From Chloroflexota bacterium (GTDB lineage: Bacteria; Chloroflexota; Dehalococcoidia; DSTF01; RBG-16-68-14): 10,002 bases of DNA. Below are positions 2-10,002 of the stretch, in pieces. The notes below the pieces were generated by a model. The model was given only the letters and a program-made list of their open reading frames with translations. It was not told the origin of the DNA and searched no databases. Position 1 is the stretch's first letter, and every line of letters begins with the position of its first letter. The position numbers and the translations under genes are program-made. Location: contig JACZTE010000016.1 in the NCBI GenBank assembly GCA_022573935.1, positions 1-10,002 of the forward strand, written 5' to 3'.

Positions 2-736
2 CAGAAGGCGCGGGGGGAGTACAAGCCTGCCGCCGAGCTGGCCGAGCTGTTGGTCGAGCGCCACGAGGGCTGGTCGGAGGAGGACTTGGACCCGGATCAG
101 GGCGACGACCCACACGATGATGTCATAGTGTTGCCTAAGTCCTGGGAGCGCGTGAGGGCGGAGAAGAAGCGAGAGATGGCGGCCCAGGTCAAGGAAGGGA
201 CGCTGCCAGGCAAAGGCAAGGGAAACAGGCTGTTGGTGCAGGTCGGGCCGTTTTACGACCGGCTGGGAGAGCCGGCGCCGGTCGAGCCTGAGTGGGCGAA
301 GGCGTACGACGTTCGGCCCGACGACCAGGAACGCGAGGTCAGGGCACACCGGCATTGGCGTGAGCGGGCGCGAGAGGCGTACCGCCGGGGCCCAACGGCG
401 CCGATCCCGTACCTGGCAGAGCTGGAGCTGGACACCGGCGAGCCGTCACAGATCGACGAGATCGTGGACGTGCACAAGAAGCTACTGCAGTCAGGCGTGG
501 TCGAACAGTGGCGCCGGCTTGGTGCCGTTGAGCAGAACATCGAGGCCGTGGCCGTCGAGTTCGACGGCGAGGACCCGGCGATCCCCGAGCTGCGCCACGT
601 TCTGACGCACAGCCGCGAGAAGCTCATCGACCTGCACAAGGAGACGCAGCGCTACACCGGGCCGTTCGAGCTGGTGGAGCCGGACGAGGAAGAGCTGGCC
701 TGGGTGCGGGAGATCATGGAGCGCGAGCCACCATAG
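2..736 (+). CDS. Unrecognised charged hypothetical protein, 5' end outside the window
   Basis: The reading frame is open from the left edge and ends at TAG 734-736, giving at least 244 residues. A TTG at 50 could serve as a start, but it has no clear ribosome binding site and the frame reads upstream as plausible protein (QKARGEYKPAAELAEL), so the gene probably begins outside the window. The product is very hydrophilic, rich in Glu, Asp and Arg, without cysteine, membrane segments or a signal peptide. The second half looks mostly helical, with heptad-like charged stretches around IDEIVDVHKKLLQSG and REKLIDLHKETQR. Codon use matches the GC-rich genes in the window, which supports real coding. 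I do not recognise the family and see no catalytic motif. It is convergent with the minus-strand operon, and nothing suggests a shared function. Confidence 0.6.
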   Translation, partial: QKARGEYKPAAELAELLVERHEGWSEEDLDPDQGDDPHDDVIVLPKSWERVRAEKKREMAAQVKEGTLPGKGKGNRLLVQVGPFYDRLGEPAPVEPEWAKAYDVRPDDQEREVRAHRHWRERAREAYRRGPTAPIPYLAELELDTGEPSQIDEIVDVHKKLLQSGVVEQWRRLGAVEQNIEAVAVEFDGEDPAIPELRHVLTHSREKLIDLHKETQRYTGPFELVEPDEEELAWVREIMEREPP

Positions 737-1064
737 CAGCGCCGGCCGCCATGCAGTTCGGTCCCTTCTCGCTGCCCATTAATGATGGAACCTGGTGCCT
801 CGGGCAAGAGCGATACATATTTCAGTCAGGCGATCCGGGACATGGGCTCATCCGCTGCGATGGGCGCTCCCTCGTCACCTAACCTGCTCGACTTCATGCT
901 CTGGCACACCCTCTCGCCGACGCCGCTAGGACACAGCGGCCTCGGTTTTCCGGAGAGGAGGATGTCGGCTGCTCAGGGTTTCTCTCGCCAAAGGGACATC
1001 CCAGGCCCCGACGCCTTGGCTGGCTCCGGAGTGGTATCGCGCCAGGCGAAAAGTAGCGCCGCCA
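737..1064. other. Gene-poor stretch between the left gene and the response-regulator fragment
   Basis: This stretch follows the stop of the left-hand gene and reaches the point where the response-regulator similarity ends. All six frames are short or read as low-complexity Ser/Thr/Arg/Pro shadows. A plus-strand frame from 782 stays open through the region and beyond, but its composition (Ser/Thr/Ala-rich, antisense to the regulator fragment) looks non-coding. I see no tRNA, terminal repeats or transposase motif. It may be decayed sequence left by the event that truncated the regulator, which is inference. Confidence 0.35.
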
Positions 1065-1185
1065 CCACAGCCACCAGCGCCTCCTCTCCGTCAGGAGCGA
1101 CATCGACGGCGTGGCCTTCTTCGGACAACCCCTGGCGGACAAACTCCGCGATCCTCCGCCCGTCTTCGACCAGTAGTACTCGCAC
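973..1185 (-). pseudogene. Truncated OmpR/PhoB-type response regulator (receiver N-terminus only)
   Basis: From a GTG at 1185 the frame reads VRVLLVEDGRRIAEFV and then a stretch ending HAVDVAPDGEEAL. This is the typical first 40 residues of an OmpR-family receiver domain: beta-1, the acidic E-D pair, helix 1 and beta-2. After about residue 40 (near position 1065) the similarity stops. The rest, to the stop at 973, is unrelated, so the phospho-acceptor Asp region, the conserved Thr and Lys, and the winged-helix DNA-binding domain are all missing. A normal member is about 220-240 residues; this one is 70. The residue after the E-D pair is Gly rather than the common second Asp or Glu. No good ribosome binding site lies before the GTG. 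It sits downstream of the oxidoreductase operon in the same direction, so it may be what is left of a linked two-component system. A functional short protein is unlikely. Confidence 0.6.
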
Positions 1186-1358: not shown

Positions 1359-2399
1359 CTATGATCCGGCCCCAGCCCGAAGCTCGGATGCCTGAAGCCG
1401 AGTGCCGATCCCACTGCCCAACTGAGCGGCACCGCTGAGGAAGGCCACGCCCAGCAGAATCAACAGGTGGTGATAGGTGGCCTCGGGCATGTATCCAGCG
1501 ATCAGCAGCAAGAGCAAGCCGGCCCCAATCCAGGACGAGGACGCATCGCCGCTCCGCAAGCAAGCCACCACGGTGAGCAGGTACAGAGCCAGCGAGAGGA
1601 GATACACCGGGAGCGGGAAGAAGAAGCTCATCCCTGTCGTCCAGAGGGCCAGAATCGATGTGGTGGATGCCGGGGCGAGACTGCCGAAGGCCACGGCCAG
1701 CACTAGCGCCGCCACGAGTGCCATCCCCGCCGGCCCCGCGCTTCGCCAGCGTCCGGCGCCCCAGGCCCAGAATGCAGCACCGCCAGATACCACGACGAAG
1801 CCCTCGCCAAGCCGCAGCGTAGCGATGCTGAGCGGCGGCACGGCCGCATAGTCGAGCAGTCGAACGGTGAGATAGCCCAATGTGTAGTACTGATAGCAGA
1901 CGTAGGCGGCAACGATCAGGCCAAGAGCCAGCCGCCCAGCCAGCGTCGTCTCGCGCTGGCTCACCAGCACGATCCCGACAAGAACGACGAGCAACGTCAT
2001 CGCGAACCCGAACAGGGCGTCGGCGGCGAGAGCACCTGTCGCCAGGCTCCAGCCGAGGCCCCAGAGCATCAGCACCGAGAGTGCAGCCACCAGCAGGCGG
2101 GCAACTTGGTTCTGCATCCGTAAAACCATCGATCCCAGCAGGAGCACAATCAGGATAGTCGCCAGAATAGACGCGAAGTTGAACGCCAACGACCCCAAGA
2201 ACGAGGCAGCCTCAAACCCGCTGTTCACCGCCTCTTCCCGTGGCAGGTAGACGCCGACTCGCGTTACCAGACGCAGCAAGACCACTTCAAGCAGGGCAGC
2301 GGCCAGTAGCGCGGCGGCCAACTGCCGCACGATGGCAGGATCGAGTCTGAGCCGCGCCAGTCTCCATTTGGCTAAGCGTGGCGCGGCTTGCCCGAGCAT
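1359..2399 (-). CDS. Polytopic membrane protein ending the oxidoreductase operon
   Basis: The 346-residue product is almost wholly hydrophobic, with about 10 predicted transmembrane helices. Rough positions are 25-46, 68-92, 101-121, 127-147, 154-172, 191-213, 223-243, 250-280 (one long or two short), 289-303 and 309-326. The N-terminus is basic (RLAKWRLARLRL), which would favour a cytoplasmic N-terminus. The only histidines are the adjacent pair at 310-311 (TYHH) in the last helix. NarI-type haem-b subunits need four, so a dihaem cytochrome b is excluded. No CXXCH haem-c motif or iron-sulfur motif is present. The ATG lies only 3 bases after the gamma-subunit stop, so translation is almost surely coupled to it. 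Its place suggests a membrane partner, assembly factor or quinone-site protein of the complex, but I recognise no family and the role is inference. Confidence 0.75.
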   Translation of the reverse strand: MLGQAAPRLAKWRLARLRLDPAIVRQLAAALLAAALLEVVLLRLVTRVGVYLPREEAVNSGFEAASFLGSLAFNFASILATILIVLLLGSMVLRMQNQVARLLVAALSVLMLWGLGWSLATGALAADALFGFAMTLLVVLVGIVLVSQRETTLAGRLALGLIVAAYVCYQYYTLGYLTVRLLDYAAVPPLSIATLRLGEGFVVVSGGAAFWAWGAGRWRSAGPAGMALVAALVLAVAFGSLAPASTTSILALWTTGMSFFFPLPVYLLSLALYLLTVVACLRSGDASSSWIGAGLLLLLIAGYMPEATYHHLLILLGVAFLSGAAQLGSGIGTRLQASELRAGAGS

Positions 2400-2402
2400 C
2401 GG

Positions 2403-3389
2403 CTACGCTGCCTTGCCTCGCGCTTGCATGAGATAGGCGCCTCCCGCCGCTGCCACCAGCACTAGTGCGCCCACCACTATGAGAATGATCGCCCAGGCGG
2501 GAAAGCCTCCGGTAGGCGCCTCTGCGATCTCAGAGGAGACGTCCAGGGTGAGGAATTGCGAGACCGACTTCATGCCGTCCCGCTCTTGCTTAGCGCCATC
2601 CCACACGGCGAAGGCGACGTTCGTGCTGCTTCCTATTGCGAATTGCGCGTACTCGCCCTCCGTCGCCAGGTCACGAGCGAACACGACTCTCCACCGTCCG
2701 TCACGCCACTCGCCCTGCCCCTGTACCATCTGGTCCTCTGCCGCCGTGAGTGTGCCGAAGCTGCCCGCCAGCAGGTTGTCGGCGGCGGTCTGCCGGGCTA
2801 GGCGCGCGGCGACATTGCCCACGGCTCTGGGGGGGTAAAACTCCTCCTCATCCTCGAATGGGTAGAAGTCGACCTGCATGTCGGGGTAGGCGTCCTCAAC
2901 GTCGACGAAGCCTTGCTCGATGTCGGCCTGCCAGGCCGCTTTCCACTGCCAGATGTTGACCGGCGCGTTGGGATCGCCCATGCAGAACGCCGGCACCCGT
3001 TCGCCCTCCGTCGCGGGGAACTGCACTGCCACCGCGTCGCTGAACTCAGTCTGGCGGCTCGCCAGCATGTCCTCGGTCTCGTCCTCCCACTCCACGCGAA
3101 TGTACAGGCGCTGGCCATCGTGTAGAGCGCGGGCGGTAATGATGCCCTCGCCTCCGGCCTTGGGCTGGATCGCCTGCTGGCCGCTCAGGGGAACGTTCAC
3201 CGGGGCGCCCCGCTTCCACACGTCAGCCGAGGGGTCGTCCAGGGGTATGGGCTCCTCGCTATGCTTCGCGACCAGCGTGACCGTCTGGGACGAGGCCAAC
3301 TGGACGTCCCGTATCGTCAGCACGAACGCCGCCGTGAGCGCCAGGAGCGTGATCCCAAGGGTTATCCACCTAGTCTGCATGTTCATCAT
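2403..3389 (-). CDS. nxrC: Gamma subunit: haem-b protein of the ethylbenzene dehydrogenase/NxrC type
   Basis: The 328-residue protein has an N-terminal hydrophobic segment (about 8-26, a signal peptide or anchor), a beta-rich domain and a C-terminal transmembrane helix (about 297-321) followed by a short basic tail. Between them it resembles the gamma subunits of type II DMSO reductase family enzymes (ethylbenzene dehydrogenase, chlorate/selenate reductase, NXR), which bind one haem b through Met and Lys. Met137 in AFCMGDP and Lys274 in DGMKSVSQF are the matching ligand candidates by motif and position. It would pass electrons between the iron-sulfur subunit and membrane or soluble carriers on the outer face. 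The chosen ATG has GGAGGAG ten bases upstream; a second ATG follows directly and a third at 3380. Its start overlaps the end of the chaperone gene by 20 bases, indicating coupling. The symbol follows the alpha/beta resemblance and is provisional. Confidence 0.8.
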   Translation of the reverse strand: MMNMQTRWITLGITLLALTAAFVLTIRDVQLASSQTVTLVAKHSEEPIPLDDPSADVWKRGAPVNVPLSGQQAIQPKAGGEGIITARALHDGQRLYIRVEWEDETEDMLASRQTEFSDAVAVQFPATEGERVPAFCMGDPNAPVNIWQWKAAWQADIEQGFVDVEDAYPDMQVDFYPFEDEEEFYPPRAVGNVAARLARQTAADNLLAGSFGTLTAAEDQMVQGQGEWRDGRWRVVFARDLATEGEYAQFAIGSSTNVAFAVWDGAKQERDGMKSVSQFLTLDVSSEIAEAPTGGFPAWAIILIVVGALVLVAAAGGAYLMQARGKAA

Positions 3390-4143
3390 CGTGTGCTTGC
3401 TCCTCCGGTGAACATGCCTCGCTTACCGGACAGCTGAACTCCTCCAGGGCGGGCCTTTCCAGGTGAGGGTCATTGAGCGGTACGTCCGGACGAACCTTTA
3501 GCAGGGCGATATCGGCTGCGATGAACGATTCGGTAAGCGATGCGACCGCGCCGAAGAAGCCACCGTTGGCCTTGGCGCGCAGCCGCTCCGCAAACACGCC
3601 TGCCCAGCGGCCCAAGTGATCGTGCATGAACTTCCGCTGTGCGCCACGGCAGAGGCGGGCGTTGCTCGGAACGTGATGGATCCAAGCATGGGCCTCCTTG
3701 TAGGTCAGGAGGTGCATGAACTCCAGCTCCACGCTAATGTGATCGGGCCGCTCCTTCTCCTCCAGCTCAACGCCGAAGGCGCTGAAGAAGCCGCGAATGT
3801 CGGCGAGCTCCTGGACCTCCTGGACGATTTGACTGGTCGTGTACACGGTCTCGCACGGCGGGCAGTCCACCGACATGATGTGCGAGAACACTCTCCGGTG
3901 TTCCGTCTGAAGGCTGACTGCATCGTTCGCGCGCAGTTGATCCTCGAGCGTCCCCAGCAACGGAAGTAGCTGGCCGGGGAGGTACGCTGCCTCCTCCAAT
4001 ACCTGAGGCAGATCGACGTTCCGCAGCTCTGCCACGGCCTCTTCGGTTGGGTAGGCAAAGCACTGCGACAAGACGCGATACGCTAGGCTTCGAGCCAACT
4101 CGCGATGCACTGCCTGCTCTGGCCTCACGCTCGTTCGAGTCAC
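3370..4143 (-). CDS. TorD/NarJ-family molybdoenzyme assembly chaperone
   Basis: The 257-residue, mostly helical cytoplasmic protein carries the features of the TorD/DmsD/NarJ chaperones. These are a segment around residues 95-102 (PPCETVYT), a 'QELADIRGFFSAFG' helix near 110-124, and the hallmark ERPDHISVELEFMHLL at 131-146. Family members bind the alpha subunit's signal region and hold it for molybdenum-cofactor insertion before Tat export. The alpha subunit here has exactly such a signal. The C-terminal tail has a Cys-x5-Cys pair (CPVSEAC, 238-244) and many acidic and His residues, which is an extra not needed for the family fold. The start is GTG at 4143, with GGAGGA nine bases upstream and 16 bases after the beta-subunit stop. 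Position between beta and gamma is typical for these operons (compare narGHJI and serABDC-like orders). Confidence 0.9.
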   Translation of the reverse strand: MTRTSVRPEQAVHRELARSLAYRVLSQCFAYPTEEAVAELRNVDLPQVLEEAAYLPGQLLPLLGTLEDQLRANDAVSLQTEHRRVFSHIMSVDCPPCETVYTTSQIVQEVQELADIRGFFSAFGVELEEKERPDHISVELEFMHLLTYKEAHAWIHHVPSNARLCRGAQRKFMHDHLGRWAGVFAERLRAKANGGFFGAVASLTESFIAADIALLKVRPDVPLNDPHLERPALEEFSCPVSEACSPEEQAHDDEHAD

Positions 4144-4159
4144 CGTACCCTGTCCTCCG

Positions 4160-5413
4160 TCAGATAGAGTTCTGATACTGGCTGGGCCGCTCGAAGAACG
4201 GCTCGACGACCGAGAGCCGGACGATCTCCTTGTCCTCCGAGTTGAAACCGACGATTGTGTCGTTGTACATCTCGAAGGGGCGGCCGTTGACCTCAGTGTC
4301 GACTACCTGCTCCCCCTCTTCGAATTCGTAGCGGAAGACGATCTGCTGGCTGGCGCGGAAGAGCTGCAGAATAGCGAGCAGCTCCCGCGAAGGGTTTGTG
4401 TACCGTTCGATAGCGTCGTCCACGCCGGGACCGAACATCTGGCGCAGGTACTGGCGCGGCACCCAGCGGGGCGGGATGTAGTAGATGTTCGGCTCGGTAC
4501 CGAACTGCGGGTAGAGAGGCAGGGCCACCCGCTCCTGGCGCACCAGGAAGTGCAGCGGGTTGTTGCGGTCCTCTGCCCACTCCCCGTTCTCGATCCGCAC
4601 CAGGCCCTGCAGCCGGATCTTGCCGACGCATGAGGCCATGCAGCGTGTCTCCATCGGTATCCCCTCGGTCAGCGGGTCACTGCCTTCGACGCGGGGATAG
4701 CAGCCAATGCACTTCTCGCTGACCTGTGTGTTGGGCCGGTACATCGACTTCTTGTAGGGGCACTGCTCGACACACTTGCGGTAGCCGCGGCAGCGCTCCT
4801 GGTCGATGAGGACGATGCCGTCCTCGGGGCGCTTGTAGATGGCGTTTCTGGGACACGCCGATACGCAGCCCGGGTAGGTGCAGTGATTACAGATGCGCTG
4901 TAGATAGAAGAACCAGGTCTTGTGCTCCGGCAGCTCGGCGCCATCGGAGACGTTCTCGTTTTGCCTTCCCTTGGGCCCTTTGGCCGTATCCTCGTACAGG
5001 TTTGGGGCCGTCCAGTCCTGATCGGTAGGAAGGTAGCCAAGAGCGTGCTCGTTGCCTTCCTTAGCGGCGGCCTCAAAGATGGTCATGCCGTTGAAGACAC
5101 CGTACGGTTGGCGGTCATCTTGCTGGGATGCGTCCCACCTCTGGCCGCCGGGGTTGGCCTCCTGTAGGAGCTTCAGCAGCTTCAAGTCCCAGTGGTGGGG
5201 ATAGCCGCCGTAGGGCTTGGTCTCGACGTTGTTCCACCACATGTACTCCTGACCGCGGCTAAAGGTCCATGTCGACTTGCAGGCCATCGTACACGTCTGG
5301 CAGGCGATGCAGCGGTTGATGTTGAACACCGCGACGAACTGCCGCTCCGGATGCACCTCCGAGAAGCGGTACTGCATCTCCCGTCCCAACTGCCAGTTGT
5401 ACACATCGGCCAT
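4160..5413 (-). CDS. nxrB: Beta subunit: four-cluster iron-sulfur protein, NXR/nitrate reductase type
   Basis: This electron-transfer subunit is 417 residues from the ATG at 5413. That start has AAGGTG about six bases upstream; a GTG at 5422 would add three residues but has no ribosome binding site. Counting from that GTG, cysteine groups are 38-41-44-48, 178-181-186-190, 211-217-221, and 238-241 with 261-265. Together they make ligand sets for three [4Fe-4S] clusters and one [3Fe-4S]. In the third group Tyr214 stands where ferredoxins have a Cys (CRGYRKCVEQC); NarH has Trp there and binds [3Fe-4S]. The stretches YNWQLGREM, MWWNNVETKPYGGYP and LPLYPQFGTEP closely recall Nitrospira NxrB from memory. 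There is no signal peptide, so export must occur with the Tat-tagged alpha subunit. It starts 39 bases after the alpha stop, where a short inverted repeat (5442-5454) overlaps that stop codon. Confidence 0.92.
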   Translation of the reverse strand: MADVYNWQLGREMQYRFSEVHPERQFVAVFNINRCIACQTCTMACKSTWTFSRGQEYMWWNNVETKPYGGYPHHWDLKLLKLLQEANPGGQRWDASQQDDRQPYGVFNGMTIFEAAAKEGNEHALGYLPTDQDWTAPNLYEDTAKGPKGRQNENVSDGAELPEHKTWFFYLQRICNHCTYPGCVSACPRNAIYKRPEDGIVLIDQERCRGYRKCVEQCPYKKSMYRPNTQVSEKCIGCYPRVEGSDPLTEGIPMETRCMASCVGKIRLQGLVRIENGEWAEDRNNPLHFLVRQERVALPLYPQFGTEPNIYYIPPRWVPRQYLRQMFGPGVDDAIERYTNPSRELLAILQLFRASQQIVFRYEFEEGEQVVDTEVNGRPFEMYNDTIVGFNSEDKEIVRLSVVEPFFERPSQYQNSI

Positions 5414-5452
5414 GGTTGTCACCTTGCGCCGCGCGGGCTTGAGCCGCTGCGG

Positions 5453-8400
5453 CTAGCTGCTCCCTTCCGTCTGCACGAAGCCGCCTGCCATGTATTTCTT
5501 CATATCATCGCTTTCCTTGGCCGGAGTCATGCCTGTAGTCGCCGGCTCCCATACACCCTTGCCTTCGAGGCCGCCGGGCTCGGCCTTCGAGATCTTCACC
5601 AGCGTCTCCTTAGGCACGGTGTTGATGGCGTGGTTGTCCGACTCTCCGCCGAACATGAAGCTCGGGGAAATCTTGCTCTTGTGGAACAGCGTGTCGGTCT
5701 GGTGCATCGGCATTGCCCAGTCGCGGGTGAGGCTCTGATGCGAGCCGTAGCGCAGGCTCGCCTGGTAGCCGGTGTCTTCGGAAACAGCGCGGCCGTCGGC
5801 GCGCGTTTCGTGGGCCTTCACCGACCTCTCGGTCGCCATGGAGGGTGCGTGCTTGATCATCAGCACGTTGTACGCGTAGGCGGGGTTGTAGCGGGCCCGC
5901 AGCATCAGACGCGCTACCTTGAAGAACGGGTCGTCCGGCTTCGCGTCCAGGTAGGGACGGTCAGCCGGGTTGGCATCGAGGTAGACGTAGTCGCCATCCT
6001 CGATGCCAAGATCTTTCGCCGCCTCGGGGTTGATGTGGACCTGGTGATCGCCGACGCCCGGCATCCGCTTGTCCTGTCGATACGGGTCGCCGAAGTTGGA
6101 GTCCCAGATCGCGTGCCAGTCGACGCTGCTCCACTGCGAGTGCACGCGGTGGCGGGTCTTCGGGGTGAGGAGGTAGAAGCTGAACCCCTGCTCCCAGAGC
6201 GGGTTCTTCGTGGTCTTCACTTCCGCCCACGACATCTTGTTGTTGGCGACCGTGCGCAGGTCGGCGTCCAGCACCTTCTCTTGCAGCATCTCCGGAGTGA
6301 TGCCCTGATTGTCCGGTCGAATGTAGGGGTTGGTGCTCACGATGACGTTGGGCAGGTAGGGCGTCGCCTCGGGCCCTTCCCGGTGCACGACGAAGTTCTC
6401 CCCGTGCTCGATCGCCTCCGGGATATCACAGTAGGCGTTCAGGCGCCCGGTATCGGTGAAGAACGGAACATTGTCGTGTGTTTGCTCGTAGAAGGCGATG
6501 CGCGGGTAGGTGCGGAACATCATCAGCGCGGCGCCCGGCTCGCCGTACACGCCGGCCATGATGTCGTCCACCTTGTAGCCCTTGGTGGTGGTAGAAGCGT
6601 CCAACAAGCGTTGGAGGTAGACCTCCGGCCGGCCCTCCAATGCGAACTTCCAGTAGTCGGCGAGGCGTCCGTCATTCAGGAGATCGCCCAGCTTTTTCGC
6701 TACCTCGGCGATGATGGTGACATCGTCCTTGCTGTCATACACCGGTTTGATGCCGCCCTTTCCCCAGATCTGGAGAAACGGGTTGGAGCAAGAGGCGGTC
6801 ACCTCCAGCGACTGGAACTCCATCCAGGAGTTGGCGGGCAGGATGAAGTCAGAGTATTCGCCGCTCGCCGTCATCTCGATGTCCTGGTCGATGATCATGT
6901 CGACCTTCGGGTTGACGTTCTTGATGATGCCGTAGGCCCACTTGGCGTTGTTGATGATGTTGACGTTGTTGAACCACATCACTTTCGTCGGCGTGGGCAT
7001 GTGGGTCTTGCCGGTGAAGATCTTTCTGCCGTGGGCTGGCGTGTCGACGATGAGCGCCTGGTCGCCGTGGTCCCAGTACGCCGGTTCCTCGCCCTTCGTG
7101 TGGCTCTTGACCTTGATGTCGCTGCCCGAGGCCTCAGGGTCGAGGTTCGGCTGGAGCGGGTCCTCGGCGACCCAGCCCTTGAACCCGGGGCCGGACCAGG
7201 GCGAGGCCTGGAAGAGAGCCGCCTTATAGTTTCCCGCCCACGTATGGCAGCCTGCCCCGGGCTGGCCGATGTTGCCCGTGAGCATCAGCGGGAGGTACGT
7301 CGCCCGGTTGTGCAGCGTGGCGTGGAACCAATGGTTGATCCCTTCGCCGATGTGGATGGCGACGGGCTTGATCGTGGCGATGTCGTTAGCAAGCCGCTCG
7401 ACGAGCTCCTTCGGCGCGCCGCAGATCTCCTCTACTGTGTCGAGGTCGTAATCCCGGAGGTGGATCTTGTACATCTCCCAGAGGGTCATCACCTCGACCT
7501 CGCTGCCGTCCGCGAGGCGCACCGTTTCCTTGTACTCCAGCGCCGGGTCGATCCCTTTCTGCCCCATTCGCTCGCCCACGTCGTCGCGGGTGATCGCTCG
7601 CAAGCTGGCGCTACCTCGGTCGAAGACCACGTAGTCGCCGAGTTGCTCGTACTGCTCCTGCTTGAGCCCCTGGAGCGCGAAGCTGGGTCCGTCTTGCGAG
7701 AGCCCCAGCTGGTAGCCCGGGAACAGCTCGTGGGCGCGCAGGCGCTTCAGGTTGTCGGTGCGCACCAGGAGCGGGAAGTCCGTGAACGCCTTGACGAACG
7801 GTTCGTCGTAGAGCCCGCGATCCATCAGGATCTTTGTGATGCCCAAGAAGATCGTCGTGTCAGAGAGGCCGGGCCGTATCGGAATCCAGTAGTCAGCCTT
7901 GCTCGCCGCCGGGCTGTACTCCGGCGTGATGGTGACGATCTTGCCGCCGCGCTCCATCAGCTCGTTGAAGAAGTGGTTCTCCGGCATCTTGTTCTCGACC
8001 AGGTTCTTGCCGCACTGGATGTGGAGCCGGCTGGTGCGCAGGTCATTGAAGTCCACGTCGGAGGTCTGTAGTCCGTGGACGAACGGGTGCCCTGGCGCCT
8101 GGTCGCCGTGCCAGGTGTAGTTGGACCAGTTGCGTCCGCCCAGCGCTTCGTCTGGATCGATGCCGCGCACGTGGCTGTCGAGGAAGGTGAGCATGTTGGA
8201 GAACCGATACATGCCGTACTTGCCGATAACTCCTAGCAGGCCCATGCCACCCCGCAGCTTGAAGGCGCGGGTGCCGGCGCCGTGCATCTCCTCGATCATC
8301 TCCGGCTGGTAGCCCTCGGCCTCAAGCCGGCGGACTCCTTCCTCGCCGCTGTAGAGCTCGGCGATGGCGATCATCCCGCGGGCGATGTATTCGTACGCCT

Positions 8401-8932
8401 CATCCCAGGAGAGACGGACGAACACGTCCTGGCCGCGAGCCGTGAACATGTATGTGTCGCGGTTCTCGGGCGTTAACTCGGGGAAGCCGGCGTCGGCCCA
8501 CCGCCTCCAACCTTCACGGACCATCGGATACTTGATGCGGTACGGCCCGTAGACCCGCCGGTGCATGGTCAGCCCCTTCTGGCAGCCGCGCGGGTTCCAG
8601 TGAGCGGTGGCCTTATTGCCGAGAAGGTCTGCATACTTCTGCACGTCGTAGTTCTGCTCGATGCGCGTGACGACGCCGTTGCGCGTGAACGCGCGCAGCC
8701 GGCAGGCGTGGGTATCGTTGGGCGAACAAACGAAGGTGAAGCTATCGTTGTAGGCGTACTGGTCGCGATAGACGGTCTCCCAATCCCGGTTCGGATAGTC
8801 TTCCAGGGGATTGCCGATGGAGACAGGCTGCAGGCGCCGCAGAGCCAGACCCGCTGGGCTGCCCATCATGATGGCAGTAGCTGCCACGCCACCGCTCAGT
8901 TTCAGAAAGGTTCGACGGCTTACCGATCTCAT
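5453..8932 (-). CDS. nxrA: Alpha catalytic subunit: Tat-exported Mo-bisPGD oxidoreductase, NXR/nitrate reductase type
   Basis: The 1159-residue protein starts with a perfect twin-arginine signal (SRRTFLK at 5-11, then a hydrophobic stretch to about 31), so the active site faces outside the membrane. The FS0 iron-sulfur motif is Cys69-x3-Asp73-x3-Cys77 with Cys117 in NPRGCQKG. NarG has His-x3-Cys-x3-Cys plus Cys, so Asp takes the place of one cysteine. Asp277 in NYTWHGDQAP aligns with the molybdenum-ligand Asp of the type II DMSO reductase family (NarG, EbdA). The following stretch, IQCGKNLVENKMPENHF, fits the cofactor-binding domain. The C-terminal dinucleotide-binding domain is visible from about 918, with RHRVHSQWSS and INPEAAKDLGIEDGDYV. 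Length suits NXR and archaeal-type nitrate reductases. The ATG overlaps the preceding stop by four bases and has GGGGGA upstream. Nitrite oxidation is the leading guess; nitrate, chlorate or selenate reduction remain possible. Confidence 0.92.
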   Translation of the reverse strand: MRSVSRRTFLKLSGGVAATAIMMGSPAGLALRRLQPVSIGNPLEDYPNRDWETVYRDQYAYNDSFTFVCSPNDTHACRLRAFTRNGVVTRIEQNYDVQKYADLLGNKATAHWNPRGCQKGLTMHRRVYGPYRIKYPMVREGWRRWADAGFPELTPENRDTYMFTARGQDVFVRLSWDEAYEYIARGMIAIAELYSGEEGVRRLEAEGYQPEMIEEMHGAGTRAFKLRGGMGLLGVIGKYGMYRFSNMLTFLDSHVRGIDPDEALGGRNWSNYTWHGDQAPGHPFVHGLQTSDVDFNDLRTSRLHIQCGKNLVENKMPENHFFNELMERGGKIVTITPEYSPAASKADYWIPIRPGLSDTTIFLGITKILMDRGLYDEPFVKAFTDFPLLVRTDNLKRLRAHELFPGYQLGLSQDGPSFALQGLKQEQYEQLGDYVVFDRGSASLRAITRDDVGERMGQKGIDPALEYKETVRLADGSEVEVMTLWEMYKIHLRDYDLDTVEEICGAPKELVERLANDIATIKPVAIHIGEGINHWFHATLHNRATYLPLMLTGNIGQPGAGCHTWAGNYKAALFQASPWSGPGFKGWVAEDPLQPNLDPEASGSDIKVKSHTKGEEPAYWDHGDQALIVDTPAHGRKIFTGKTHMPTPTKVMWFNNVNIINNAKWAYGIIKNVNPKVDMIIDQDIEMTASGEYSDFILPANSWMEFQSLEVTASCSNPFLQIWGKGGIKPVYDSKDDVTIIAEVAKKLGDLLNDGRLADYWKFALEGRPEVYLQRLLDASTTTKGYKVDDIMAGVYGEPGAALMMFRTYPRIAFYEQTHDNVPFFTDTGRLNAYCDIPEAIEHGENFVVHREGPEATPYLPNVIVSTNPYIRPDNQGITPEMLQEKVLDADLRTVANNKMSWAEVKTTKNPLWEQGFSFYLLTPKTRHRVHSQWSSVDWHAIWDSNFGDPYRQDKRMPGVGDHQVHINPEAAKDLGIEDGDYVYLDANPADRPYLDAKPDDPFFKVARLMLRARYNPAYAYNVLMIKHAPSMATERSVKAHETRADGRAVSEDTGYQASLRYGSHQSLTRDWAMPMHQTDTLFHKSKISPSFMFGGESDNHAINTVPKETLVKISKAEPGGLEGKGVWEPATTGMTPAKESDDMKKYMAGGFVQTEGSS

Positions 8933-9219
8933 GGTCGATCCCCCGTCTGCTGCCGGAGCCCTACTCTCATCTCGTCGACAGCCGCCACGAGGCTCTGAAC
9001 GAACTCTTCACCCTTGAGACGCAGGATGTTGTGCGGCAAGCGGAAGGAGGGACTATGGAACATCCGGAGAATGCGCTCCCCAGTCCAACCCATACGCGCG
9101 TACTCCTCCACAAACGACCACGCCATCTCCGTAAGCGCCTCATCGCCTGGATCCTCGTCCAGCCCTACGCCTACCAACTCCATCGGGTCCTCAGGATCCG
9201 CCAGTTTGGTGGTCATCAT
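8929..9219 (-). CDS. Small unrecognised protein leading the oxidoreductase operon
   Basis: The 96-residue soluble protein has an acidic N-terminus (LADPEDPMELVGVGLDEDPG), then a helical region with WSFVEEYARMGW (34-45), ERILRMFHSPSFRLPHN (48-64) and a helix to about 88. It has no cysteine, signal peptide or membrane segment. Its stop overlaps the alpha-subunit ATG in an ATGA, a strong sign that both are co-translated and that the small protein is part of the system. The ATG at 9219 is followed by another at 9216; GAGGG lies seven bases upstream. Length and position are compatible with a private assembly factor, a signal-peptide-binding partner or a regulator, but I cannot name a family. The compact pattern of aromatic, Gly, Pro and His residues around 42-64 looks like a conserved motif rather than random sequence. 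Confidence 0.75.
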   Translation of the reverse strand: MMTTKLADPEDPMELVGVGLDEDPGDEALTEMAWSFVEEYARMGWTGERILRMFHSPSFRLPHNILRLKGEEFVQSLVAAVDEMRVGLRQQTGDRP

Positions 9220-9351: not shown

Positions 9352-9696
9352 CCAGGCCAGTTAGGCTGTGTTTCTGCAAAAGCAGCCGTCAAGAGAGGGA
9401 CGCAGCGGGGCGTGTAGGGTTGTCGGGGTCGCAGCGATCGGCAACCGTCAGAGGCAGTAAGCGCGCCGAGAGGAGAAGTTCTCGTTGGTGCGACGGCGGT
9501 CTAGAGAATCGACAAGTACGCGGGCCCCTACCCCTCCCGCCGCCGCGCGTACCAGGCCGCGCCGCCGAGGATGAAGGCACACTCCGAATCTTGATCCCTG
9601 CATTGACAGCCGCTCTCTGATAGGGTCACCACACGGTACCCAATCGAGGGCGAAATCAGTGCGCTGCCACAACTCTGCTTGACGCTACGGTGGCGA

Positions 9697-10002
9697 ATGC
9701 AGATAATCAGCGGGAAGCACAGAACTACCAGGAAGGGCGGGCACCCAACGAGGACGAAGTGGCTACTAATCGGCATTGGGCTTCTCGTTGGCGTGGTTAC
9801 CATAGCTGCCATAGCTTGTGACGACGACGATGAGAACGGCGGTGCCGGGGAGCTCACGGTCACCCTGTCAGAGATGGAAGGATCGGGCGTGACTGGGACA
9901 GCCACCCTCACCGAGGATGACGACGGGACCACACGAGTGGTGGTATCGATGGAGGGGCTACCGGAAGGGCCTCACGCCAACCACAGCCACCACGTCACTT
10001 GC
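9697..10002 (+). CDS. Probable lipoprotein with Cu/Zn-SOD- or CHRD-like domain, 3' end outside the window
   Basis: The frame from ATG 9697 is open to the right edge (102 codons). It has a basic N-terminus (residues 1-21), a hydrophobic segment from about 22 (WLLIGIGLLVGVVTIAAIA) and a Cys at 41 that could be lipidated, although Ala rather than Leu is at the -3 position. An acidic Asp/Glu/Gly linker (DDDDENGGAGE) follows. The mature part reads LTVTLSEMEGSGVTGTATL, then VVVSMEGLPEGPHANHSHHVTC. This beta-strand pattern with a Gly-Leu-Pro-x-Gly turn leading to a His cluster is seen in Cu/Zn superoxide dismutase-like and CHRD-type extracellular domains. The His cluster could bind metal. The ribosome binding site is weak; a TTG at 9679 is an alternative start. 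It is transcribed away from the oxidoreductase operon and a functional link is not shown. Confidence 0.7.
   Translation, partial: MQIISGKHRTTRKGGHPTRTKWLLIGIGLLVGVVTIAAIACDDDDENGGAGELTVTLSEMEGSGVTGTATLTEDDDGTTRVVVSMEGLPEGPHANHSHHVTC

What the first reader, a model, noticed from the sequence alone, without database searches (positions are those of the whole stretch)
1359..9219. Complete six-gene operon for an exported NXR-like type II molybdoenzyme
Alpha (Tat signal, Mo ligand Asp277), beta (four Fe-S clusters), chaperone, haem-b gamma and two extra genes form one tightly coupled unit. The beta subunit in particular recalls Nitrospira-type NxrB rather than NarH of Proteobacteria. If the host is not a known nitrite oxidiser, this could mark a new nitrite-oxidising or reversible nitrate-reducing lineage.
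Basis: partly seen in the sequence, partly recalled or inferred. Interest (0 to 1): 0.7.

Follow-up and report, generated by a model that had tools for sequence, protein, structure and literature searches.

The report
Exported nitrite-oxidoreductase operon of an uncultured Chloroflexota
The window carries a complete six-gene operon for an exported enzyme that interconverts nitrite and nitrate, of the type used by anammox and nitrite-oxidising bacteria; the enzyme type is already known to be widespread in uncultured bacteria, but two of its six genes belong to protein families without a name.

Summary
In detail: six tightly spaced minus-strand genes at 1359-9219. Alpha matches Kuenenia NXR-A over its full length (1786.7 bits; next PDB chain 192) and keeps the Mo, substrate and FS0 ligands. 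Beta has 15 Cys, as one [3Fe-4S] and three [4Fe-4S] clusters need. Gamma keeps both haem-b ligands. Trees put alpha in a clade with anammox NXR (support 100), outside chlorate reductase and NarG. Nitrospira and Nitrospina sequences could not be fetched.

"New nitrite-oxidising lineage" is only partly supported: relatives are common (574 of 586 stretches, capped), the closest named ones are Chloroflexota, and sequence cannot give the direction.

New here: (1) The 96-aa first gene belongs to an unnamed helical family. 14 of 14 strong hits in 897 genomes lie beside such an NxrA; 0 of 8 anammox-clade genomes have it. (2) The last gene is an unnamed membrane protein, following gamma in 22 of 65 loci. 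(3) The operon looks mosaic: alpha groups with SAR202-type operons, beta and gamma reject that (p-AU about 1e-6).

The parts
8929..9219 (-). First gene, 96 aa, unnamed NXR-linked small helical protein ('orf96')
   Evidence: No Pfam or NCBIfam match; 38 family members scanned, best E 0.0044 for 2 of 38. 1476 homologues. Homologues in 66 of 80 NXR loci. AlphaFold model of four helices, mean pLDDT 89.4.
5453..8932 (-). nxrA: catalytic alpha subunit, Tat-exported, Mo-bisMGD and FS0 cluster
   Evidence: 1786.7 bits to Kuenenia NXR-A 7b04 over residues 4-1155. N72, D277, C69/D73/C77/C117 aligned with Asn70, Asp275, C67/D71/C75/C115 (residues named). 84% to the best relative that bears a name, a Chloroflexi bacterium.
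4160..5422 (-). nxrB: beta subunit with four Fe-S clusters
   Evidence: 614.6 bits to Kuenenia NXR-B. 15 cysteines, conserved in 68 full-length rows with one gap. The ATG 9 bases inside the listed GTG start is another possible start.
3370..4143 (-). TorD/NarJ-type assembly chaperone (nxrD)
   Evidence: PF02613 74.8 bits. TIGR03482 type II DMSO reductase chaperone 98.3 bits, below its cut-off of 152.3.
2403..3389 (-). nxrC: haem-b gamma subunit with N-terminal signal-like helix and C-terminal membrane helix
   Evidence: PF09459 136.1 bits. TIGR03477 166.1 bits, just under 169.85. Haem ligands Met155/Lys305 of Kuenenia align with M137/K274 (ligands named). Hydrophobic stretches 8-26 and 300-318.
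1359..2399 (-). Last gene, 346 aa, unnamed polytopic membrane protein
   Evidence: No family match; 23 family members scanned, best E 0.0076 for 1 of 23. A hydrophobic frame of 306-350 aa follows gamma within about 215 bases in 22 of 65 loci with gamma. Invariant R43 R47 P53 E199 W253 G256 Y266 G302. Helical model, mean pLDDT 87.4.

Best explanation
This is the operon of a periplasmic (exported) nitrite oxidoreductase in an uncultured member of the Chloroflexota. Alpha receives its Mo cofactor with the help of the TorD-type chaperone and goes through the Tat pathway with beta carried along. It converts nitrite to nitrate, or the reverse, at the Mo held by Asp277, with Asn72 contacting the substrate. 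Electrons pass through FS0 (three Cys and Asp73), the four clusters of beta and the Met137/Lys274 haem b of gamma. Gamma is held to the membrane by a C-terminal helix and probably by the polytopic protein of gene six. From there they would go by cytochrome c to the aerobic terminal oxidase (nitrite oxidation, the more likely direction) or come from the respiratory chain (nitrate reduction). The 96-aa protein of gene one has no visible export signal and is most likely a dedicated assembly factor or a small subunit carried along by alpha. Shown by computation: gene content, homology, ligand conservation, tree position, tight linkage of gene one to this enzyme type. Inferred: reaction, direction, membrane anchoring by gene six, role of gene one, host.
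For: Full-length match to a biochemically studied NXR. 64.5 and 64.6% identity to two Kuenenia hertensis NxrA copies and 28% to NarG and ClrA, against 40-43% to seven distant Chloroflexota alphas. Active-site and haem ligands conserved. Clade support 100 in the quick tree of 112 rows and 100/100 in the careful tree of 43 rows. A, B, chaperone and gamma recur together in most of the 80 loci, as far as the contigs reach. A haem-copper oxidase subunit in the genomes of the two nearest kin, G001 and G002, and no NirK there over the cut-off.
Against: No activity data. RuBisCO was found in 0 of 8 kin genomes, so there is no support for autotrophy by that route. NCBIfam type II DMSO reductase models score below their cut-offs. 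True Nitrospira and Nitrospina sequences could not be fetched, so bracketing by proven enzymes rests on anammox alone. Two of the 8 kin genomes have strong NirK-like matches below the cut-off (G009 E 9.9e-77; G003 E 4.1e-54, in two pieces with a stop) and one has NirK over it (G004), so some relatives may denitrify. The window's host genome is not held.
Confidence: 0.8

Rival explanations
1. The same enzyme works in the cell as a periplasmic nitrate reductase: electrons from the chain enter through gene six and gamma, and nitrate is reduced on the outside.
For: Kuenenia NXR reduces nitrate too (PMC8387239). PMC10839748 judges that the NXR/NAR-like enzymes of Nitrospinota outside Nitrospinia likely reduce nitrate. 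A freshwater Chloroflexi study filed such genes under denitrification (PMC6169038). NirK-like genes in 3 of 8 kin genomes, one over the cut-off. A dedicated membrane protein after gamma could be a quinol link (inference).
Against: The membrane protein family has no invariant His for bis-His haem b. The two nearest kin genomes carry an oxidase of the COX1 family and no NirK over the cut-off. Met/Lys ligation likely gives the haem b a high potential (PMC8387239), which suits electron flow to cytochrome c.
Confidence: 0.35
2. A type II molybdoenzyme for another substrate (chlorate, selenate, dimethyl sulfide, hydrocarbon) that only resembles NXR.
For: Gamma and chaperone belong to families shared with ethylbenzene dehydrogenase and other type II enzymes.
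Against: Alpha identity 28% to ClrA against 65% to anammox NxrA. The substrate Asn is kept in 99 of 100 clade rows but is G in ClrA. ClrA and NarG lie outside with full support, though on long branches.
Confidence: 0.04
3. The 96-aa gene is a translation artefact or a chance neighbour with no tie to the enzyme.
For: Not annotated with any family.
Against: 1476 homologues in a database search. Present in 66 of 80 loci from many phyla. 14 of 14 strong hits in 897 genomes sit beside NxrA. Confident helical model.
Confidence: 0.03

Closest known systems
Kuenenia stuttgartiensis NXR-ABC (PDB 7b04, PMC8387239)
   Same: Alpha, beta and haem-b gamma all match by sequence. Same Mo, substrate, FS0 and haem ligands.
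   Different: Here gamma goes on for 51 residues past the match and ends in a membrane helix, while the Kuenenia chain ends 14 residues past it. A membrane protein follows gamma here. Anammox-clade loci have another gene order where alpha and beta are on one contig, and 0 of 8 anammox-clade genomes have the 96-aa gene. NXR-T was not looked for.
Nitrospira / Nitrospina periplasmic NXR
   Same: Tat-exported alpha, beta thought to be carried along, haem-b gamma and TorD-type chaperone, as described in passages of PMC3578206 and PMC12342949.
   Different: N. defluvii NxrB is reported with Asp45 among the ligands and NxrA with QN where the window has QT (PMC6050957). Whether they carry the 96-aa gene was not tested, since no sequence could be fetched; both papers mention proteins of unknown function in nxr-linked clusters.
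Nitrotoga / Nitrocaldera-type periplasmic NXR (PMC6050957, PMC11009272)
   Same: Operon of A, B, C and chaperone, periplasmic. Operons of this outline occur in Chloroflexota loci L103-L108 (in L107 the contig ends within gamma).
   Different: Those Chloroflexota alphas share only 40-43% with the window and form a separate clade. The 96-aa gene is absent from all 7 genomes in which only this type was found. That these loci are of the Nitrotoga type is inferred from tree position and from the 40% given in PMC8387239; no Nitrotoga or Nitrocaldera sequence was compared.
Ethylbenzene dehydrogenase / chlorate reductase (type II DMSO reductase family)
   Same: Gamma and chaperone families.
   Different: Alpha and beta are far more distant.
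CbsA/CbsB cytochrome b558/566 of Sulfolobus
   Same: Gamma also matches the CbsA model TIGR03154 at 43.3 bits, far below its cut-off of 468.4. A membrane protein follows gamma as, from memory, CbsB follows CbsA.
   Different: No sequence or fold link between gene six and CbsB was found; CbsB itself was not fetched.

Membership tests
Periplasmic NXR of the Nitrospira/Nitrospina/anammox type | Alpha branches with proven NXR of this clade | tested here: met
   100-row clade with 9 anammox rows, support 100; 100/100. Nitrospira and Nitrospina rows could not be included.
Periplasmic NXR of the Nitrospira/Nitrospina/anammox type | Tat signal on alpha, none on beta | tested here: met
   SRRTFLK motif; TAT_signal 21.3 bits, slightly under its cut-off of 22.7. 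No signal seen at the start of beta (by eye on the translation).
Periplasmic NXR of the Nitrospira/Nitrospina/anammox type | Mo ligand Asp, substrate Asn, FS0 of three Cys and one Asp | tested here: met
   D277, N72, C69/D73/C77/C117.
Periplasmic NXR of the Nitrospira/Nitrospina/anammox type | Haem-b gamma with Met/Lys ligands | tested here: met
   M137 and K274 align with Met155 and Lys305.
Periplasmic NXR of the Nitrospira/Nitrospina/anammox type | Nitrite oxidation activity | not testable with these tools
   Needs enzyme or culture.
Nitrospira-type NxrB in the narrow sense | Asp at the position of N. defluvii Asp45 in cluster IV | tested here: not met
   All 15 ligand positions are Cys; the Asp45 statement is from a passage of PMC6050957.
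Chlorate / ethylbenzene type II enzymes | Alpha inside their clade | tested here: not met
   ClrA outside with full support. Ethylbenzene dehydrogenase (166 bits) and 4ydd (192 bits, perchlorate reductase from memory) compared by PDB score only, against 1786.7 for NXR-A. SerA and DdhA not tested.
Membrane-bound cytoplasmic NarGHI / Nitrobacter-type NXR | FS0 with His at the first position and NarI-type gamma | tested here: not met
   Cys69 where E. coli NarG has His; gamma is EB_dh-type. No Nitrobacter sequence was compared.

The most novel reading that the evidence does not exclude
The 96-aa protein is a dedicated, so far unnamed component (assembly factor or fourth subunit) of the periplasmic NXR. 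It was present when this clade of enzymes spread through many phyla and was lost in anammox bacteria, so that it marks a large set of uncultured putative nitrite oxidisers. In the window's lineage the catalytic subunit was replaced inside the operon by one of SAR202 type, which also moved this gene in front of alpha.
Probability: 0.4. Interest if true: 0.6.

Novelty: new member of a known kind. Interest (0 to 1): 0.42.

Why it matters
[quoted passage not shown] The operon shows that the anammox-related type of enzyme in Chloroflexota often comes with two further conserved proteins of unknown role, one of them closely tied to this enzyme type. This gives a candidate gene marker to separate this NXR type from Nitrotoga-like and NarG-type genes in metagenomes, and two candidates to test for assembly and for electron transfer to the membrane.

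Tried and rejected

Nitrospira and Nitrospina: no sequence could be reached. The phylum of G011 (locus titled Nitrospinota) was searched for them (7 of 18 genomes with a match), but one of its hits (L082) has the same coordinates as the Tectomicrobia locus L069, so these 18 genomes are probably not Nitrospinia. A protein search with seven relatives of the 96-aa protein from non-Chloroflexota loci listed no Nitrospira or Nitrospina by name among the 120 best of 748; most rows have no name, so this decides nothing.

Idea that a remnant of a replaced alpha lies upstream of gene one: the window's upstream stretch gave nothing better than E 2.3; in L001 the best was E 0.003 over 44 residues about 3 kb upstream, which may be another molybdoenzyme and was not followed. 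The mosaic reading therefore rests on trees and gene order alone. The groups for the AU tests were named after seeing the first trees, and the tests used chosen subsets: 20 alpha rows (of 112), 32 beta and 31 gamma rows. Grouping with the Tepidiforma-type set is only weakly supported in beta (73/84) and in gamma neither shown nor rejected (p-AU 0.22). Replacement of beta and gamma in the SAR202 lineage instead is not excluded.

Rfam and tRNA scans of the window: nothing. Near DNA match to plasmids: only two short pieces within beta.

Limits of the linkage count: the 897 genomes are 400 Chloroflexota, 299 of the phylum of G014 (chosen because its locus had the gene) and 198 of the phylum of G440 (whose own locus lacks it). 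Some of the hit genomes also gave rows to the profile that found them (G001, G009 and G014 for certain; G315 by its matching coordinates with L048), so the 14 are not all independent finds. One further weak hit (G132, E 7.6e-4) has no NXR gene nearby and is taken as chance. NxrA itself was counted only in the Chloroflexota set, at E <= 1e-200, which misses fragments such as that in G168.

Papers looked at by passages without bearing on the enzyme in Chloroflexota: PMC12766754 (nitrite oxidation ascribed to Methylomirabilota) and PMC12501874.
Full report
What is there. The minus strand from 9219 to 1359 carries six genes in one direction: a 96-aa protein, alpha of 1159 aa, beta of 420 aa, a 257-aa chaperone, gamma of 328 aa and a 346-aa membrane protein. 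By these coordinates the junctions are an overlap of 4 bp, gaps of 30 and 16 bp, an overlap of 20 bp and a gap of 3 bp. The longest ATG frame in 100 order-1 Markov controls was 392 aa, so the longest frames are not chance; the shorter ones are supported by their homologues.

What alpha, beta and gamma are. Against all PDB sequences, alpha matches subunit A of Kuenenia nitrite oxidoreductase (7b04) at 1786.7 bits over residues 4-1155. The next match (4ydd, a type II enzyme that I recall as perchlorate reductase) has 192, ethylbenzene dehydrogenase 166 and the best NarG chain 126. Beta matches NXR-B at 614.6 bits, next 214.5. Gamma matches NXR-C at 111.9 bits, next 70.3. The alignment puts D277, N72 and C69/D73/C77/C117 on the Mo ligand Asp275, the substrate-side Asn70 and the FS0 ligands C67/D71/C75/C115 described for Kuenenia (passages of PMC8387239). 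M137 and K274 of gamma fall on the haem ligands Met155 and Lys305. Beta has 15 Cys, conserved in 68 full-length rows but for one gap. From established knowledge, three [4Fe-4S] and one [3Fe-4S] need 15 ligands.

Where it branches. A database search scored 7994 candidates and gave 2699 homologues; the best 120 were listed, at 69% identity or more, and the best that bear a name are Chloroflexi bacteria (84%, 81%). They come from Chloroflexota, Omnitrophota, Acidobacteria, Methylomirabilota, anammox Planctomycetota and others. A tree of 112 alphas was built from the window, 79 of the 80 loci (the partial L065 was left out), 16 of the 120 listed proteins and 16 further loci. It puts the window in a 100-row clade with 9 anammox rows (support 100). 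Seven distant Chloroflexota alphas plus one from a Natronococcus plasmid are its sister, and NarG, ClrA and two haloarchaeal alphas lie outside, most of them on long branches. A careful 43-row tree agrees (100/100). The beta tree agrees in outline, but its 71-row fork has 94 (not starred) and its careful search did not finish. Identity of the window alpha to the two Kuenenia hertensis copies is 64.5 and 64.6%, to NarG and ClrA 28%, and to the seven distant Chloroflexota alphas 40-43%. PMC8387239 gives about 60% between Kuenenia and the nitrite oxidisers and 40% to Nitrotoga, so the window lies about as near to Kuenenia NXR as cultured nitrite oxidisers do. No Nitrospira, Nitrospina or Nitrotoga sequence could be fetched; that comparison rests on the paper.

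The small first gene. The 96-aa protein has no Pfam or NCBIfam match; among all 38 members of its alignment the best Pfam E-value is 0.0044 (2 of 38) and the best NCBIfam one 0.092. It has 1476 homologues, none with a Pfam domain among the 120 listed. It is found in 66 of the 80 fetched loci. In 63 of these it lies downstream of alpha, as a rule between alpha and beta; in L001, L002, L065 and the window it precedes alpha. Whole-genome counts: 12 of 400 Chloroflexota genomes have a match. Ten lie within about 90 bases (match to match) of an alpha of this clade, and an eleventh (G168) stands near a contig start next to the C-terminal end of such an alpha. The twelfth, weak at E 7.6e-4, has no NXR gene nearby. 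The 7 Chloroflexota genomes in which only the distant alpha type was found have none; in G386, which has both types, the gene sits at the copy of this clade. Further hits: 1 of 299 in the phylum of G014 (G014 itself) and 2 of 198 in the phylum of G440, all three beside alpha and beta. In sum 14 of 14 strong hits, though some of these genomes also gave rows to the profile. Of the 14 loci without the gene, nine are the rows of the anammox clade (three of them titled only Planctomycetota or Planctomycetia and placed there by the tree). I searched 13 genomes for these loci (L077 left out as a second contig of the L076 isolate): 0 of 8 anammox-clade genomes have the gene; of the other five, one (G437) has it beside beta and chaperone on another contig. 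The model is a four-helix protein, mean pLDDT 89.4, without a PDB match at E <= 0.001. With no visible export signal, it is best read as an assembly factor or a subunit carried along with alpha; which of the two is not decided. One paper search with the phrase 'between nxrA and nxrB' and three other terms counted that phrase in none of the 20 papers listed of 55. The passages read on Nitrotoga and Nitrosediminicolota operons name A, B, C and chaperone. Those on Nitrospira and Nitrospina also mention proteins of unknown function in nxr-linked clusters, which I could not compare; the family may be among them.

The last gene. A hydrophobic frame of 306-350 aa follows gamma within about 215 bases in 22 of 65 loci with gamma (picked by length and hydropathy); all but the unassigned bacterium HR29 (L016) are titled as Chloroflexota groups. 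L002 has its start before the contig ends. Aligned with the window's they share R43, R47, P53, E199, W253, G256, Y266 and G302, although identity to the window is 20-29% for all but L001 (54%), and tblastn at E <= 1e-3 sees only 13 of 80 loci. No family matches (best E 0.0076 in 1 of 23; 0.088 in 1 of 23), no PDB match at E <= 0.001. There is no invariant His, so a bis-His haem is unlikely. Gamma has an N-terminal signal-like helix and a C-terminal membrane helix, unlike the operon-encoded gamma of Nitrospina, which is thought soluble (PMC3578206). I infer that gene six anchors gamma or passes electrons on.

A mosaic operon. In alpha, the window with L001 and L002 groups with SAR202/Dehalococcoidia-type operons (L003, L005, L009, L067; 95/94); forcing it with the Tepidiforma-type set is rejected (p-AU 0.010, 20 chosen rows). 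In beta and gamma, forcing it with the SAR202 set is rejected (p-AU 1.1e-6 and 1.8e-6, 32 and 31 chosen rows). Gamma identity is 39-47% to the 11 Tepidiforma-type loci with gamma and 29-34% to the four SAR202-type ones. Gene six was not seen after gamma in those four SAR202-type loci; of the 11 Tepidiforma-type ones, 7 have it and 4 do not (L006, L007, L012; L062 only a 174-aa hydrophobic frame). The chaperone and the 96-aa protein favour neither set clearly. Since gene one stands before alpha only in this lineage among the fetched loci, an alpha put in between gene one and beta would explain order and trees together. Caveats: groups were named after the first trees, and no remnant of an older alpha was found.

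Function and direction. Kin genomes G001 and G002 have a strong COX1-family match (14 of 14 searched genomes had one over the cut-off, the two anammox genomes G012 and G013 only at E about 1e-13). RuBisCO: 0 of 8. NirK: over the cut-off in 1 of 8 (G004), strong but below it in G003 and G009, and at most E 6.9e-4 in G001 and none in G002. Hadal MAGs assigned to Chloroflexi RBG_16_64_32, the source name of one of the window's close alphas (P0011), were reported with the 3-hydroxypropionate pathway (PMC8276468). This fits an aerobic host in the nearest kin and makes nitrite oxidation the more likely direction, but it is weak evidence. PMC10839748 states that NXR and NAR are hard to tell apart by sequence and favours nitrate reduction for some relatives; PMC10732223 could not assign a direction and hypothesises NxrA for its cluster.

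Compared with the literature (passages only: PMC8387239, PMC11009272, PMC6050957, PMC3578206, PMC6169038, PMC8276468, PMC9562985, PMC10839748, PMC12342949, PMC12766754, PMC12501874, PMC10732223; all other papers were seen only in the listings). A Chloroflexi member with NxrB-like, chaperone and NxrC genes but no NxrA was noted in 2013 (PMC3578206). Nitrate reductase/nitrite oxidoreductase genes in Chloroflexi or in many MAG phyla are reported in PMC6169038 and PMC8276468. [quoted passage not shown] The enzyme in the window is thus a new member of a known kind. What I did not find in print, and the passages named, is the tie of the 96-aa family to this enzyme type.

Noticed in passing
window 973-1185, minus strand: A 70-aa frame matches only the first 36-43 residues of response-regulator models (best 30.4 bits, all far below their cut-offs): it looks like a broken remnant of a regulator gene downstream of the operon.
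   Followed up: no
L013, L015, L016, L030, L040, L042, L057, L062, L073 and L069, L079, L117-L120 (alpha): In 15 of 100 clade alphas the FS0 ligand Asp is Cys, giving four Cys. The passage of PMC8387239 that I read names only 3Cys/1Asp or 3Cys/1His, so this looks like a third FS0 type in two separate groups of the tree.
   Followed up: partly
L108 and L109 (genome G386): One Chloroflexota genome holds both the anammox-related and the distant (Nitrotoga-like) operon; only the first has the 96-aa gene.
   Followed up: partly
L122 5001-8494 (Natronococcus occultus plasmid 2): An NXR-like alpha match over the whole query, 36.8% identical in two pieces, lies where the PLSDB gene table lists no gene, next to a listed beta and TorD gene; the frame may be interrupted.
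   Followed up: no
L073 (alpha): The only one of 100 clade rows whose substrate-side Asn is replaced (Thr).
   Followed up: no
window 2-736 plus strand and 9679-10002 plus strand: Two frames beside the operon, each cut by a window end, without any Pfam or NCBIfam match.
   Followed up: no
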